From a virus, in the IMG/VR virus record IMGVR_UViG_3300013102_000034, positions 1-60,738 of that record: a stretch of DNA of 60,738 bases; one strand, given 5' to 3'. This document shows, in pieces, positions 10,552 through 20,155 of this stretch. Each line of letters begins with the position of its first letter. Positions within the stretch are counted from its first letter, which is position 1. The notes beneath the pieces are model-generated. The model did no database searches. It was not told the DNA's origin and was given only the letters and a program-made list of their open reading frames with translations. A program made the translations under genes and the position numbers.

Positions 10552-10973
10552 TCGGCCTCGATCCTTGCTCGCTCATCCTGGAGGTAGAAGATGGCCTTGT
10601 CGATCTCCTGGAGTCTCTGCTCCTTGGTCGCGGCATTCGAACCCTTGAGGCCGATGCGCCACAGGTACTTGAGCACGTTGCCGATGTTGAAGTTGTGATG
10701 CCGCGCGACAGTGATGCACTCGACGCCAGACGGGTGAGAGTTGTAGTGCTTCGGGTGCTCAACCGGCGAGTCGCCCGGGTCTTCGACCGGTGAAGTCCCA
10801 ATCGTCTCCGCCATTTCAAACTGCTCGGCGTCATAACCCCACGTCATGCCCACGAAGTAGAGAACGCCGGACCGGCAGTGCGAGATTGTGTATTTTACAC
10901 CATTGATCATTCCCTCAGACTCGATGCTCGGCCCCGTCCGAACGACCTCGTCGCCAACCTTGAATTTGCTCAT
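10548..10973 (-). CDS. DUF3310 domain protein
   Basis: The ATG at 10973 is chosen because it overlaps the primase stop as ATGA and follows GGGAGGT. The 141-residue protein has an N-terminal KVGDEVV beta segment and a C-terminal DUF3310 region (HPKHYN, GNVLKYLWR, then a KAIFYL helix), a small phage domain often encoded with replication genes whose biochemical role is not settled. Confidence 0.8.
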   Translation of the reverse strand: MSKFKVGDEVVRTGPSIESEGMINGVKYTISHCRSGVLYFVGMTWGYDAEQFEMAETIGTSPVEDPGDSPVEHPKHYNSHPSGVECITVARHHNFNIGNVLKYLWRIGLKGSNAATKEQRLQEIDKAIFYLQDERARIEAE

Positions 10974-13414
10974 TCCACTACCTCCCACACGTTTCCGGCA
11001 AGCTGAATCTTGCCCTCCTTTTCGGCGCGATCAATAATCTCGTCGACCTCAAACTTCTTCATGTTCTGGAACATCGGCGACTTGAGAATGCCCGCCGTTG
11101 TCCTGCGCCTCGACTCTACCAGGGCAACCAGCCCATCCACAAGTCGTCGGTAGGCAGATGCGGAAACCGCCTCAGCGAGGTCGACGGACCCCTTCACCCA
11201 CCACTCGCCAGACTTGATGGCCAGGAGCATGTCTTCCATCTCGATCAGGTTGCGCCCCTCGCTGAGCGCGATCAGGGCGGCACCCTTGAGCATGTTCTGC
11301 CCCACGCGCAGGAGAACGCCCCGCAGGTACTCGGAGAGCGGGTGCTTGCTCGCGTACGCCTCCAGCTTCTCGCGCATGTCCACGTAGCAATCCACGACAT
11401 CCTGCGACACGAAGCCCATGCGCTGACGCTCTCCGTCCAGGTGCGCCACCATCTGACGCACGGGGACCGCAAACGAGTCCATCATCGGGTGACGTCCGCC
11501 GTTCTCGACCTGATACTCGCTGGCGATCTGTGGCGTCAGGGATTCGCGGGTCACCTCGGCGTCCCCACCAACTGCCACCAGGAATCGGCCCACGAAGCCG
11601 TTCTCGATGTGGCGCGAGTCCATCGTCTCCACGACCGGACCCCAGGCACCCTGCATCCAGAGCGTGAAAGAAACCTCAGCCTCCTCGCCGACCTGTTCCT
11701 TGTCCATGCCGCGGCGCAGCTGGCGCTTGGCCTTGCCGTCGTAGAGCTTGAGGTACGCGCCGAGAACCTTGGACTCGTATGAGCCGGGTCGCTTAGCCCC
11801 CTCCAGGAACTCGCGGCACTCGTCCATGAAGATGCCCATCGACTTTCCGGGGCGATCCATTACGACATCGAGCAGCTGTTCGGCGCTCGCGTCTTCACCG
11901 AGCGAGACAGAGCCGAACCCGCCCGGGCGCATGGCGTCCACGGTGCTGTCGCGGTGGTCGTTGGCGTCGGACTTACCGGCCGCGGATGGTGCAAGGTTCA
12001 GCCCCCACAGAGAGAGAGGCGTGCGCCCCTTCTGCTCGTAGATGTTGCCCTTGTCACCGATGCCTACTGAGAGGGCAATCCAGGCGTTGACGTAGTGCAA
12101 CGGGAGATTGGGCTTGGCGTAGAAGATTTTGGCGGTTTCGATGTAATTGTCAATGAAATTCGGGTAGTTTCGGACGATTGCGCGCTGTTCGTCACTCAAA
12201 AGGACGACGGGAACCTTGGGCGTCTTCTTCTCTGCCTTCGGGGCAGGCTCGCCCCAGTCCTCGTCCAGCGCTTCATCGGCCTGAGGCACCGGCTGTTCGT
12301 ACTCGGCCTTGACGAAGCCCCAGGTGGACGACGAACCCGAGTTGGATGCCCGAATGCGCTTCATTGCGGCGCACTCGTAGGAGATGCTGTACGCCTCCTG
12401 CTCGGTGGCACCCTTGAGGCGCAGTGCATGGATCAGCTTCTTGACATCGCCGATCTTCTTCGACTCCCAGTACAGGCGATCCACCTCAGAGTCGCCGAAC
12501 CGGGTCAGGAGATCGTCATCCACCTCCAGGCGGATCGGGGTGTACCCCGGGTGCTCGGCGACCTGACCCTCGGTCTGCTGGCGTGCGCTATTCCAGCGCT
12601 CTTCTCGCAGGTAGGCGTGGTTCTTGCTCCGAATGGGGGCGTGCTCCAGGAAGAGGGCGTGCGCGGTGGCTTCGTCGGTCGCGTAGTGCGGCGAGTTGAT
12701 GATGCGGTGCAGGTGGCACGCGGCACGGAACTGCACGTCATGGTATCCGGCACCCTTGCGCCACGGCCGCGGGAGCGCATCCAGCGTGTCGGTGATGCCC
12801 TTGAGGACGCGCTTCTCGGCCTCGGTGACCTCTGCGGCATGGACGACGGGCGTAGACTCTGCGGCCTCGGTGGCTTCATCCTCTGCGGCGTCATGGTGGT
12901 TGCGCCGGGGAAGAAGCTCGGCCACGTCCTCGGGGAGGTCGGGGAAGTCGCTGTAGTCGTCCGTGTATGCGACGATGTAGCCACCCTCGCCGCGGATGTC
13001 GATGTCCTTCGCGACCCGGCTCTTATTGGTCTGGATGTCCATGCCGGGGTCGACCTCGTAGCGAATGTGTCGGCCGCCACTGGGCGTTTCCACGTCGCTT
13101 CCCTCGGCAAACCAGTGCTCGCTCCACCACTCGTCTGCCTGGTCGCTGTCGATGTCAACCGCGATGAATCCGTTCATGTCGCCCGTGGGCGTACCCCAGC
13201 GGCATCCCTTATATTCGGCAACCCACTTCTCTACCTGTGCGGGGTCGGTTGTCGCGACCTTGCTCCACGCGAGGCGCGGCACAGAGTAGTCCCACTTGGG
13301 GTTGACGGGGTGCTGGCGAACGTTAGCTGCGACCGGGCGCTTGTCGCCGGGGTCTGTCGGGAAGATCGAGATTCCCTGTTCGATCAGCTTGAACGGGTCA
13401 ACGTCGTAAGTCAA
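10970..13414 (-). CDS. Bifunctional primase (PrimPol-type AEP) with C-terminal ATPase-like region
   Basis: This 814-residue replication protein starts at TTG 13414 behind GGGAG. The N-terminus is a PrimPol-type archaeo-eukaryotic primase: D87-I-D89, the SGGRHIRY motif at 112-119 and DIRGEGGY at 139-146. After an acidic linker, the C-terminal half has APSAAGKSD (474-482) as a P-loop-like turn and FMDECREF (529-536) as a Walker B-like segment, resembling DUF3987 helicase-like modules. It should make primers and perhaps unwind DNA at the fork. No DNA polymerase gene is present, so it must hand over to the host replicase. Confidence 0.88.
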   Translation of the reverse strand: MTYDVDPFKLIEQGISIFPTDPGDKRPVAANVRQHPVNPKWDYSVPRLAWSKVATTDPAQVEKWVAEYKGCRWGTPTGDMNGFIAVDIDSDQADEWWSEHWFAEGSDVETPSGGRHIRYEVDPGMDIQTNKSRVAKDIDIRGEGGYIVAYTDDYSDFPDLPEDVAELLPRRNHHDAAEDEATEAAESTPVVHAAEVTEAEKRVLKGITDTLDALPRPWRKGAGYHDVQFRAACHLHRIINSPHYATDEATAHALFLEHAPIRSKNHAYLREERWNSARQQTEGQVAEHPGYTPIRLEVDDDLLTRFGDSEVDRLYWESKKIGDVKKLIHALRLKGATEQEAYSISYECAAMKRIRASNSGSSSTWGFVKAEYEQPVPQADEALDEDWGEPAPKAEKKTPKVPVVLLSDEQRAIVRNYPNFIDNYIETAKIFYAKPNLPLHYVNAWIALSVGIGDKGNIYEQKGRTPLSLWGLNLAPSAAGKSDANDHRDSTVDAMRPGGFGSVSLGEDASAEQLLDVVMDRPGKSMGIFMDECREFLEGAKRPGSYESKVLGAYLKLYDGKAKRQLRRGMDKEQVGEEAEVSFTLWMQGAWGPVVETMDSRHIENGFVGRFLVAVGGDAEVTRESLTPQIASEYQVENGGRHPMMDSFAVPVRQMVAHLDGERQRMGFVSQDVVDCYVDMREKLEAYASKHPLSEYLRGVLLRVGQNMLKGAALIALSEGRNLIEMEDMLLAIKSGEWWVKGSVDLAEAVSASAYRRLVDGLVALVESRRRTTAGILKSPMFQNMKKFEVDEIIDRAEKEGKIQLAGNVWEVVE

Positions 13415-13441
13415 AATCTCCCTCTCGTGATGATGTTGTAA

Positions 13442-13524
13442 TGGTGGAGCATGTGAGAGTTGAACTCACGTCCGCCTGCGTTCCCTCGTGGGGCTTTCAC
13501 AGACGTCGACACCGGCAATGCCCC
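13442..13524 (-). ncRNA. tmRNA-like RNA: tRNA-like domain without a message domain
   Basis: This 83-nt element reads as the tRNA-like half of tmRNA. The acceptor stem GGGGCAT/ATGCTCC pairs over all seven positions with a G3-U70 wobble, the alanine identity element, followed by A73 and encoded CCA. The T-arm is GTGAG-TTCAACT-CTCAC with the tmRNA-type loop. The 5' side carries GGTGTCGACG in place of a D-arm, as in tmRNA. A 7-bp P2-like stem GTCTGTG/CGCAGGC is closed by only 17 nt, so there is no tag reading frame and no pseudoknots. A normal anticodon arm cannot be drawn. It lies between a membrane protein gene and the primase. Confidence 0.72.
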
Positions 13525-13535
13525 GCCCCTCTACG

Positions 13536-13751
13536 TTACCAGATGGCAACCGGAGGAGTTGTAGCTCCCATGTAGCCGCACACAATGGCGACCGCGAATG
13601 TAAATCCGATTCCGAACCCTACTCGCTGCGCTTCCCTCTGGCCCCCGTCGTTCAACTTCTCGACCGGAGTATTCAGGTAGTAGAAGAAGTTCGAGAGCCA
13701 GGTGAAGCCCGCGACGGAAACGCCCGCCGCGAGCAACACCCAGGCGATCAT
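13536..13751 (-). CDS. Small membrane protein, two membrane segments
   Basis: This 71-residue protein starts at an ATGA overlap with the ssDNA-binding gene. Hydrophobic segments are at about residues 2-22 and 46-66, joined by a polar loop. The partner and role are unknown. It sits 12 bases before the tmRNA-like RNA on the same transcript. Confidence 0.75.
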   Translation of the reverse strand: MIAWVLLAAGVSVAGFTWLSNFFYYLNTPVEKLNDGGQREAQRVGFGIGFTFAVAIVCGYMGATTPPVAIW

Positions 13752-14371
13752 CCCCAGTTGTCCGCGTCTGCCGACTCGTCAGCGGGGTCGTCCACGTCGC
13801 CACCGCCGAGGCCAGCGAACTCGTCCGAGACGGCGTAGAACGTGACGATCGCCTTCGGGGCAACCGGCTCGTCGAACACCTCACCCTTGGGGTTCTTCAC
13901 GAGGCGACCCTTGTCGTCCAGGCAATCCTCCCACCCGTCCTTGACCCAGTTGGTCTTCGCCGACTTCGAGGTCTGGAGGCTGTACTCCTCCCCGGGGACG
14001 TCCTCGTACTCGTGCTCGATGTTGAAATCGATGTATGTGCCATCGAGGATCGAGGCGTCCTTGCCACCGGGGGCACCCGGGGGAACCGTGCCCGCGGGGA
14101 GGCCGATCGCCTGGAGGAACGAGTTGCGACGGGCCACCTGGAAGGCGTTCTCGTTGCGGCTCAGGGGCAGGTAGTTCTCGAAGGCCAGAACCTTCTTGTA
14201 CTTGCCGTGCGTGATCGAGATGCCGAAGCCGAGGAACGCCTTGCCCTTGGTCGACTTCTTGCCCTTCGCGCGGCTGATGGTTCCCGTGTACTTGTCGCGG
14301 GGGAGCGCGGTGCTTCCGCCGCCCTTGTTCTCGGAATCCTCGTCGGTGTAGCCGTATTCGTTGTCGGTCAT
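13748..14371 (-). CDS. Putative single-stranded DNA-binding protein (DUF669-like)
   Basis: This 207-residue protein has a beta-rich core with the spacing of DUF669-type proteins (GTISRAKGKKS then GFGISITHGKYKK) and a strongly acidic C-terminus ending DADNWG, as in many ssDNA-binding proteins whose tails recruit partners. Its position between the primase and the recombination nuclease fits. The family call is by resemblance and not certain. Confidence 0.6.
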   Translation of the reverse strand: MTDNEYGYTDEDSENKGGGSTALPRDKYTGTISRAKGKKSTKGKAFLGFGISITHGKYKKVLAFENYLPLSRNENAFQVARRNSFLQAIGLPAGTVPPGAPGGKDASILDGTYIDFNIEHEYEDVPGEEYSLQTSKSAKTNWVKDGWEDCLDDKGRLVKNPKGEVFDEPVAPKAIVTFYAVSDEFAGLGGGDVDDPADESADADNWG

Positions 14372-18306: not shown

Positions 18307-18504
18307 CTACTTGTCGATCCGGTGGAACGTCCCGTGGAAGACCGGCTCAGGGTACGACGCCACAGGCCCGCCCACCTCCTGCGCCACGGTCAGCCACCGC
18401 TTCCCGCCTGGCGTTGCTGCACCGATGATCACCCACCGGTTGCCGTCCGCTTCCACGCCACGCATGGCCCATGTGCCCTCGCCGACCTTTGCCTTGGTTG
18501 TCAT
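18307..18504 (-). CDS. Small hypothetical protein
   Basis: This 65-residue basic, beta-type protein starts at an ATGA overlap with the RNA ligase gene. It contains an RWVIIGAATPGGKRW core. It is the last gene before the 12-bp hairpin and could be an accessory of RNA repair (inference from coupling only). Confidence 0.7.
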   Translation of the reverse strand: MTTKAKVGEGTWAMRGVEADGNRWVIIGAATPGGKRWLTVAQEVGGPVASYPEPVFHGTFHRIDK

Positions 18505-19802
18505 GCTTCGATACTCGCCTCTCCGCTGTCCAGTTCTTCCGTCTCGTGAAGGTAGAAACTGTCGTTCTTATACTTGAAGAAGTGACCGATGGGCCACCCC
18601 TGGTCGACCCGGATGACGACACCCTCATCCTTGCCCGTGCCACCGTCACTGAGCCGAACCGGTGTGTCAGGGTACTGGGTGTCGATGACCACATTGCTCT
18701 TCATCCACTCCAGGTAGAAGTTCTTCTCTGCGAAGTCTTCCACCCGGAAGTCGCGCTTGAATCCGCGCCATAGTTCGGGCACGTACTTGAGGCCACGGCT
18801 GTGAGCGAAGTGACGCACCTGATCCCATGACAGGTCGGTGAGTTCGCCCTGCTCGGTCACCACTGCCACGCGGTACACGTACAGTTCCATCTCCCCCGCA
18901 AAAGCCTCGTACGTGAAACCCTTCTGGATCGCCGCACCGTCCGGGGTGTAGCCCACAAGCTCACCGTAGACGATGTAGTTCTCCGGGACCGCCTCACCGT
19001 AGCGCAACGCGGCATCCGTCCAGATGTCCGTCGCGTAGAAGTGATTCTGCGTGGTCGACTTCGGGTCTTTGATGACCTTGCGCGAACCGCCGATGAGATC
19101 GAATTCCATCTCACGGACACGCACGCCCAACTTGGCCGCCAGGCGCTCGTACCACTTGTGCTCCACCTTGACGGGGACGCGGCCGAAGCGAACCGACGTT
19201 CCGTGAAGCTTCTGCGTGACGATCAACACTTCATCGTCCGTGACGTGACCCTCATTGCGAAGCCACTGGTCGGTCTCGATGTGCTCCGGGAATACCTTCG
19301 CATCCACCCGCTTGAAAGCCTTCGCCAGCTTCGCCTGCGCGGCGTTCTGCGGCTCTTTCACGGGGATGACGTACTTGCGAGAGACCTCGATCCCATTGAC
19401 CGTGTCGAACGACTGCCCCTCCTCGAATTCATCCGGGAATGAGTTCGTCACGAGCGTGACCTTTTCGAGCGGGAGGATCAGCCCCTTGCTCACGTTCCCG
19501 CGAAGCTTGAGTGCCCGGATGCGGCGGTTATCCTCCAGGTATCCAGACTCCTCTGGATCGTCGTTCAGTTCCGAATGGCGGTATAGGTTCGCGTAGGCCG
19601 TCAGCGGGTGGCTCAGCTGCGACTCGGCCGGGAACATGACGGCAAGCTCGCCGACCCGCTCAAGCCAACTGGAGTCCACGACGACGCTGATCCCGGCGAC
19701 GTTGATCCCATACAGCTTGTCGCTGTTGGGGAGCTTGTGAAGCTCGGGCACGCGGATCACTAGTGCCGCGTAGTTCTTCTCGTTCTCGATGGTGACGGTC
19801 AT
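18501..19802 (-). CDS. RNA ligase (nucleotidyltransferase superfamily)
   Basis: This enzyme joins RNA ends through lysyl-AMP. The ATG at 19802 overlaps the previous stop as ATGA; product 433 residues. The adenylation motif is K198-L-H-G (TQKLHGTSVRFG), motif III lies in VYGELVGYT, motif IV in EGVVIRV, and motif V in FFKYKNDSF. About 190 residues precede the ligase core, as in ligases of the DraRnl type with an N-terminal OB-like module. It is encoded with a polynucleotide kinase-phosphatase (20166-21089), making a tRNA/RNA repair pair. Confidence 0.88.
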   Translation of the reverse strand: MTVTIENEKNYAALVIRVPELHKLPNSDKLYGINVAGISVVVDSSWLERVGELAVMFPAESQLSHPLTAYANLYRHSELNDDPEESGYLEDNRRIRALKLRGNVSKGLILPLEKVTLVTNSFPDEFEEGQSFDTVNGIEVSRKYVIPVKEPQNAAQAKLAKAFKRVDAKVFPEHIETDQWLRNEGHVTDDEVLIVTQKLHGTSVRFGRVPVKVEHKWYERLAAKLGVRVREMEFDLIGGSRKVIKDPKSTTQNHFYATDIWTDAALRYGEAVPENYIVYGELVGYTPDGAAIQKGFTYEAFAGEMELYVYRVAVVTEQGELTDLSWDQVRHFAHSRGLKYVPELWRGFKRDFRVEDFAEKNFYLEWMKSNVVIDTQYPDTPVRLSDGGTGKDEGVVIRVDQGWPIGHFFKYKNDSFYLHETEELDSGEASIEA

Positions 19803-20155
19803 GCCTTCTCCTCCCACAGCAGGCGGGCCTCTGTGATCTCTTCGTCGTCGATGTTGATGTAGGAACGGCCGACGTTGTACGGGAGCGCGAAGTCCAGGTC
19901 TCCGTCCAGCGCGCCAGCGTACTCTTCGCCCTTGTAGGTGATGGCCCAAATCTGGCCACGCTTCGCGTTTCGGTTCGGCTTGTCGAACTCCTCGCCGCCC
20001 GCGAAGAACTCGCGCAACGCCTGCATGTCACTTGAGTTCAGGTAGTCATACTCTCCCAGGCGATTGTAGCTGTCGTGAGCATCCAGGATCGTGTACGTGT
20101 CGTTGTCTCGCCTCACGATGGCAACGTCATTGCTGGCAGTGAATCTCTTCTCCAT
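19799..20155 (-). CDS. Hypothetical protein between the RNA repair genes
   Basis: This 118-residue acidic protein has ribosome site GAGGAGGACACT before ATG 20155. It lies between the kinase-phosphatase and the ligase and is translationally coupled to the ligase. No known motif is seen; a partner role in RNA end repair is only inferred from position. Confidence 0.75.
   Translation of the reverse strand: MEKRFTASNDVAIVRRDNDTYTILDAHDSYNRLGEYDYLNSSDMQALREFFAGGEEFDKPNRNAKRGQIWAITYKGEEYAGALDGDLDFALPYNVGRSYINIDDEEITEARLLWEEKA

What the first reader, a model, noticed from the sequence alone, without database searches (positions are those of the whole stretch)
13442..13524. A tmRNA tRNA-like domain without a message domain (mini-tmRNA)
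Seen: a fully paired 7-bp acceptor stem with a G3-U70 wobble, encoded ACCA, T-loop TTCAACT, the GG-N2-TCGACG D-loop signature of tmRNA and a P2-like stem with GTCTGTG/CGCAGGC capped by only 17 nt. Known: tmRNA carries exactly these elements, is charged by AlaRS through G3-U70 and is bound by SmpB, but has about 250-300 nt of tag and pseudoknots inserted at P2. Inference: the phage encodes an alanine-chargeable RNA that could occupy SmpB, AlaRS or stalled ribosomes without supplying a tag, and so inhibit or redirect trans-translation.
Basis: partly seen in the sequence, partly recalled or inferred. Interest (0 to 1): 0.93.

Follow-up and report, generated by a model that had tools for sequence, protein, structure and literature searches.

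The report
Phage mini-tmRNA lacking the tag message
This phage carries an 83-base RNA gene that copies only the tRNA-like half of the bacterial ribosome-rescue RNA (tmRNA); relatives occur in over two hundred other virus contigs, always with the mark for alanine loading, so phages probably use it to jam or divert the host's rescue of stalled ribosomes.

Summary
Window 13442-13524(-) is an 83-nt tmRNA tRNA-like domain: Rfam tmRNA 58.5 bits (cut-off 47), 292 model positions deleted; ARAGORN misses it. It is no relic. Pattern scans gave 173 distinct mini-tmRNAs in 229 viral loci. Chosen without using pair 3-70 or stem P2, all 173 keep G3.U70 and A73 while acceptor pairs 4-7 vary with compensation. 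P2 averages 6.98 of 8 pairs (shuffled 3.96, sd 0.097). In a scan forbidding G-C at the second P2 pair, 88 of 88 sequences had another standard pair. Gene neighbourhoods are very diverse, most loci lack other tRNAs, and 39 of 39 carriers examined lack full-length tmRNA and SmpB. So it is a trans-acting RNA relying on host SmpB and AlaRS. Prior art: mycobacteriophage DS6A has a TLD-only tmRNA, and such a molecule inhibits tmRNA in E. coli (Mao 2009, cited in PMC4131195, PMC11915505). The kind is known; its breadth and invariant alanine identity appear new. Most likely an alanylated, SmpB-bound competitor of host tmRNA that supplies no tag; tagless rescue is the main rival. No expression or function was tested.

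The parts
13442..13524 (-). mini-tmRNA gene, 83 nt including encoded CCA
   Evidence: Rfam RF00023 58.5 bits, E 7.9e-22; 173 distinct viral sequences of this build
13518..13524 (-). acceptor stem 5' strand GGGGCAT; G3 at 13522
   Evidence: pairs with 13446-13452; G3.U70 invariant in 173 of 173
13505..13513 (-). deformed D-loop GG-N2-TCGAC (in known tmRNA the D-arm region contacts SmpB)
   Evidence: direct sequence; GG starts 3-6 nt before TCGAC in 168 of 173
13498..13505 (-). P2 5' strand C-GTCTGTG
   Evidence: pairs with 13473-13480; strong covariation
13481..13497 (-). apical cap AAAG-CCC-CACGA-GGG-AA replacing tag ORF and pseudoknots
   Evidence: 3-bp hairpin in the predicted fold; motif A[AG]..CC-loop-GG in 131 of 173
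13473..13480 (-). P2 3' strand CGCAGGC-G
13453..13469 (-). T arm GTGAG-TTCAACT-CTCAC
   Evidence: stem pairs 1 and 2 covary in relatives
13446..13452 (-). acceptor stem 3' strand ATGCTCC; U70 at 13448
13442..13445 (-). discriminator A73 plus encoded CCA
   Evidence: A73 in 173 of 173; CCA encoded in 49 of 173
10970..13414 (-). downstream gene: PrimPol-DUF3987 DNA primase (TTG start)
   Evidence: phrog_3022 E 5.6e-89, PF09250, PF13148
13536..13751 (-). upstream small ORF (71 aa), ends 11 nt before the RNA
   Evidence: no family match
13748..14371 (-). SSB-like protein gene in the same replication cluster
   Evidence: phrog_7778 and phrog_378, E about 1e-6

Best explanation
The element encodes a phage mini-tmRNA. 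It is transcribed with the phage replication genes and trimmed like a tRNA. Host AlaRS charges it with alanine through G3.U70/A73, and host SmpB and EF-Tu bind it. It then competes with host tmRNA for SmpB and for stalled ribosomes; having no tag reading frame, it cannot complete trans-translation, so tagging and degradation of the products made on those ribosomes is reduced during infection. Shown here by sequence: the fold, the conserved alanine identity, the absence of a message domain, wide distribution among viruses, and no SmpB in the carriers examined. Inferred: expression, alanylation, SmpB binding and the effect on trans-translation. Why phages gain from it (for example sparing phage mRNAs and proteins when mRNAs are cut) is a guess.
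For: Rfam tmRNA match over model 1-374 with the message domain missing. 173 distinct viral mini-tmRNAs: G3.U70 and A73 in 173 of 173 though neither was used in selection; acceptor pairs 4-7 show 4-6 standard pair types each; P2 6.98 of 8 pairs against 3.96 shuffled, sd 0.097. In a scan forbidding G-C at the second P2 pair, 88 of 88 had another standard pair where 4 of 9 is expected. Total length (5' end to base 73) 78-80 nt in 141 of 173. 39 of 39 carriers have exactly one over-cut-off tmRNA match, the mini, and no SmpB. 128 distinct downstream-neighbour families, so the RNA acts in trans. A similar TLD-only molecule strongly inhibits tmRNA in E. coli (PMC4131195, PMC11915505). A TLD fragment closed by a UUCG loop binds SmpB in a crystal, PDB 2CZJ (PMC3985003).
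Against: No expression, charging, binding or phenotype data. The reported inhibition in E. coli did not need alanine charging (PMC4131195), so invariant G3.U70 hints at a function beyond SmpB titration, possibly productive rescue. Genomic position is not consistently early: many copies sit between late head genes. One mini-like RNA in a Pseudonocardia MAG has G3-C70 (L212), and a degenerate one in Streptomyces phage Riptide has A3-U70.
Confidence: 0.58

Rival explanations
1. Tagless rescue: the charged mini-tmRNA-SmpB complex enters stalled ribosomes, takes over the nascent chain and helps recycle the ribosome without adding a degradation tag, as proposed for CDS-less mitochondrial tmRNA. The phage keeps ribosomes available and spares its proteins from tag-directed proteolysis.
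For: Alanine identity is invariant, as expected if ribosome entry and peptidyl transfer matter. CDS-less tmRNAs are conserved with SmpB in some mitochondria (PMC11915505).
Against: No known route releases the chain without a stop codon on the RNA, and the cap has no conserved stop triplet (95 of 173 have one in any frame). The one tested relative inhibits tmRNA.
Confidence: 0.2
2. Pure SmpB sponge: the RNA only titrates SmpB; charging is irrelevant.
For: Inhibition in E. coli by a TLD-only molecule was seen whether or not it was chargeable (PMC4131195).
Against: A sponge would let G3.U70 and A73 drift; they do not in 173 of 173 distinct sequences, while neighbouring pairs do.
Confidence: 0.1
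3. Decoy for a host defence nuclease that recognises tmRNA or its SmpB complex; CoCoNuT systems carry SmpB-like domains predicted to target RNA.
For: SmpB-like OB-folds and RNases occur in CoCoNuT defence systems (PMC11090510).
Against: No link seen here; association with RNA-repair ligases is absent (3 of 50 carriers against 1 of 33 control contigs).
Confidence: 0.06
4. Not a trans-acting RNA: an attP remnant of ssrA integration, a decaying tmRNA, or tRNA-like punctuation of the primase mRNA.
For: Phages do integrate into ssrA (PMC10865867). In Microbacterium relatives a tRNA gene sits at the same place upstream of the primase gene.
Against: Both 5' and 3' halves are present with compensatory evolution. 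The window has no tyrosine integrase match, and only 9 of 50 carriers do. Neighbour genes differ between lineages.
Confidence: 0.05

Closest known systems
Mycobacteriophage DS6A TLD-only tmRNA (tmID 11587; Mao et al. 2009; Hudson and Williams 2014, PMC4131195)
   Same: Phage-encoded tmRNA reduced to little more than the tRNA-like domain; a similar molecule inhibits host tmRNA in E. coli
   Different: One reported phage; its sequence was not in the collections searched, so whether it shares the conserved capped P2 is untested. The present family includes phages of Streptomyces and Stenotrophomonas and many unassigned viruses.
Standard one-piece tmRNA (Rfam RF00023)
   Same: Acceptor stem with G3.U70, A73, T arm, GG-N-TCGAC D-loop, P2 base
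   Different: No tag ORF and no pseudoknots; P2 is closed after 8 bp by a small hairpin
CDS-less mitochondrial tmRNA and ~65-bp Mallomonadaceae plastid tmRNA (PMC11915505)
   Same: tmRNA tRNA-like domain without a tag reading frame
   Different: Organelle genes, the mitochondrial ones mostly permuted; thought to work with nucleus-encoded SmpB
Full-length phage tmRNA (Bxz1-type mycobacteriophages, Streptomyces cluster BE phages, crAss-like phages)
   Same: tmRNA genes carried by phages
   Different: They keep a tag ORF (for example ANSNFALAA in Streptomyces phages) or are permuted (cr50_1)

Membership tests
tmRNA (Rfam RF00023), tRNA-like domain | Covariance-model score above gathering cut-off | tested here: met
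   58.5 bits against 47
tmRNA (Rfam RF00023), tRNA-like domain | G3.U70 and A73 alanine identity | tested here: met
   for the window; 173 of 173 viral sequences
tmRNA (Rfam RF00023), tRNA-like domain | Deformed D-loop GG-N-TCGAC without D-stem, and P2 in place of an anticodon stem | tested here: met
Functional full tmRNA | Tag reading frame with stop codon | tested here: not met
   292 model positions deleted; no conserved stop triplet in the cap
Functional full tmRNA | Pseudoknots PK1-PK4 | tested here: not met
   Deleted; 17-nt cap only
TLD-only phage tmRNA (DS6A type) | Phage-encoded, only the tRNA-like domain, no tag | tested here: met
   Window record is a virus record
TLD-only phage tmRNA (DS6A type) | Inhibits host trans-translation | not testable with these tools
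   Reported for the DS6A-type molecule in PMC4131195; needs an experiment here
TLD-only phage tmRNA (DS6A type) | Sequence homology with the DS6A molecule itself | not tested
   DS6A record not held
tRNA-Ala | Anticodon arm with Ala anticodon and D-stem | tested here: not met
   ARAGORN finds none; no D-stem, P2 of 8 bp

The most novel reading that the evidence does not exclude
Phages widely carry a dedicated, selected RNA family that must be alanine-charged and that subverts ribosome rescue inside the ribosome, either as a dead-end substrate or as tagless rescue, rather than merely sequestering SmpB. It would be a general RNA-based phage strategy against host translation quality control.
Probability: 0.5. 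Interest if true: 0.85.

Novelty: new member of a known kind. Interest (0 to 1): 0.72.

Why it matters
Trans-translation is the main bacterial rescue pathway for stalled ribosomes, yet in the open literature searched here phage antagonism of it rested on one mycobacteriophage RNA. Finding the same RNA in well over two hundred virus loci, with its alanine identity untouched, turns that curiosity into a family. It makes a direct question testable: do phages need to block, or to take over, ribosome rescue? It also gives natural minimal TLD RNAs for work on SmpB and on trans-translation inhibitors, and shows that ARAGORN-based phage annotation misses the genes.

Tried and rejected
A tRNA with an odd anticodon: rejected. 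tRNA-array by-product: 174 of 229 loci have no tRNA in the fetched DNA. Cis element or primase mRNA punctuation: neighbours differ between lineages, although in the window lineage a tRNA occupies the same site in relatives. attP remnant: integrase in 9 of 50 carriers and not in the window. Mini tag in the cap: no conserved stop or reading frame. Link with RNA-repair ligase: 3 of 50 carriers against 1 of 33 controls. A phage SmpB: 0 of 39. Vibrio phage VpaJT_1 hit: an ordinary tRNA sharing the T arm. Many genome-contig hits: 3' ends of full-length tmRNAs, not minis. crAss-like phage hits: permuted tmRNA, not mini. Search for close relatives through the primase in IMG/VR gave only phage ISF9, which has a tRNA there instead. 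DS6A could not be fetched, and Mao et al. 2009 is not held.

Full report
What is there. On the minus strand at 13442-13524 the window holds GGGGCAT TGCCGGTG TCGAC GTCTGTG AAAGCCCCACGAGGGAA CGCAGGC GGAC GTGAG TTCAACT CTCAC ATGCTCC A CCA. It is a complete tmRNA tRNA-like domain with an encoded CCA, closed after P2 by a 17-nt cap that folds as a 3-bp hairpin. Rfam tmRNA matches at 58.5 bits, over the curated cut-off of 47, with 292 positions (tag and pseudoknots) absent. It is the only over-cut-off tmRNA match in the 60.7-kb virus record. ARAGORN misses it.

Context. The RNA lies between a 71-aa ORF and a PrimPol-DUF3987 primase in a minus-strand replication cluster with SSB-like, exonuclease and Erf genes. 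The phage is nearest to Microbacterium phages of about 59-65 kb (primase 63-69% identical). Two that were looked at have an ordinary tRNA gene at the same place (tRNA-Ile in Fork, tRNA-Val in ISF9). Stenotrophomonas virus Jojan60, whose primase is a distant homologue (25% over 377 aa), has an 83-nt mini-tmRNA there (61.8 bits). Between the window and Jojan60 five of seven P2 pairs and two T-stem pairs changed, all staying paired.

A family. Pattern scans of 2.9 million viral contigs asked only for the D-loop core, a short gap, the P2/T junction and a T arm. The acceptor stem and most of P2 were left free. The hits separate well into chance matches and sequences with a full acceptor stem. Keeping sequences by acceptor pairs 1, 2, 4-7 and the T stem only gave 173 distinct mini-tmRNAs in 229 viral loci, the window and a few named phages included. 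Pair 3-70 is G.U and base 73 is A in all 173. Pairs 4-7 show 4-6 standard types each. P2 has 6.98 of 8 pairs on average against 3.96 (sd 0.097) when 3' strands are shuffled among sequences. The shuffle does not remove relatedness, so a prospective test is the cleaner one: a scan that excluded G-C at the second P2 pair returned 88 distinct sequences, all with another standard pair (T-A 41, A-T 34, C-G 11, T-G 2), where 4 in 9 would be expected by chance.

Who carries it. Named carriers are Streptomyces phages Shaeky, LuckySocke, GiJojo, pSt2308, Alone3 and BRock and Stenotrophomonas virus Jojan60. None carries a tmRNA annotation there; GiJojo and Jojan60 have hypothetical ORFs overlapping it. 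In 84,980 prokaryote genomes the strict pattern gave only about six real cases. Some lie on contigs that look viral (the Prochlorococcus one is the same 130,604-base contig as IMG/VR locus L074); two lie on chromosomes that also hold a full-length tmRNA (Cellulomonas massiliensis, Planctomycetes bacterium syqfu). No clear prophage was shown around those two. Viral loci differ widely: between head protease and major capsid genes, between terminase and portal, beside integrase, inside tRNA arrays, or upstream of primase. In all there are 128 distinct downstream-neighbour families, and 174 of 229 loci have no tRNA in the fetched DNA. None of 39 carriers examined has a full-length tmRNA or an SmpB.

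How it probably works. In normal trans-translation Ala-tmRNA with SmpB and EF-Tu enters the empty A site, takes the nascent chain, and the ribosome resumes on the tag ORF (PMC3985003). A molecule with everything but the ORF can compete for SmpB, EF-Tu and stalled ribosomes but cannot finish. Such a molecule strongly inhibits tmRNA in E. coli whether or not it can be charged (Mao et al. 2009, cited in PMC4131195). The engineered TLD crystallised with SmpB, closed by a UUCG loop (PDB 2CZJ; PMC3985003), is close in design. That argues against simple SmpB titration and for entry of charged mini-tmRNA into the ribosome. Whether the ribosome is then trapped or recycled without a tag is open.

Known and new. 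The kind is known from one phage (DS6A), and the current tmRNA database lists only nine 'standard, no CDS' sequences (PMC11915505). The window element is therefore a new member of a known kind. I found no paper in the open library describing the family's breadth, its conserved cap or its invariant alanine identity; most subscription papers were not searchable.

Limits. All of this is sequence evidence. Viral contigs are often fragments and host assignments are few. The loci come from exact patterns that fix TCGAC and much of the T arm, so conservation of those parts cannot be claimed from them. Two mini-like RNAs outside the counted set have lost G3.U70 (L212 in a Pseudonocardia MAG; Riptide).

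Noticed in passing
L355:676-755 (Streptomyces phage Riptide): A degenerate mini-tmRNA-like RNA: acceptor GGATTTG/CAAATCC (A3-U70), altered D-loop, yet the cap AGAAAGCCGCACGCGGAACT is kept, in a phage reported to carry a tmRNA as well (PMC12509530).
   Followed up: partly
L353:654-1149 and L354:642-1088 (crAss-like phages cr50_1, cr60_1): Annotated as SsrA. In cr50_1 the gene matches the permuted tmRNA model (60.3 bits), the acceptor 3' piece comes first and the annotation runs into a downstream tRNA; cr60_1 shows the same order by eye but no model match.
   Followed up: partly
L261 and L280 (IMGVR_UViG_3300027749_000047): Two different mini-tmRNAs about 67 kb apart on one 136-kb virus contig.
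   Followed up: no
window 13420-13441, L003, L004, L005: The motif ACAACATCA just downstream of the RNA gene and before the primase start is shared by the window, Fork, ISF9 and Jojan60, whether the RNA is a tRNA or a mini-tmRNA.
   Followed up: no
L003:1453-1526 (Microbacterium phage Fork): tRNA-Ile with anticodon AAT, unusual for bacteria, overlapping the annotated primase start.
   Followed up: no
window 18501-19949(-): RNA ligase (phrog_968, E 9e-93) in the window; a strong homologue also occurs in Jojan60, but not in mini-tmRNA carriers in general.
   Followed up: yes
window 13750-13788(-): Weak hammerhead-like match (16.1 bits, below cut-off), probably chance.
   Followed up: no
L195:1621-1716: Pistol ribozyme match (54.8 bits) about 2.2 kb upstream of the mini-tmRNA on a virus contig binned with Prochlorococcus AG-409-P03; RAGATH RNAs lie near the tmRNA in cr50_1 and cr60_1.
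   Followed up: no
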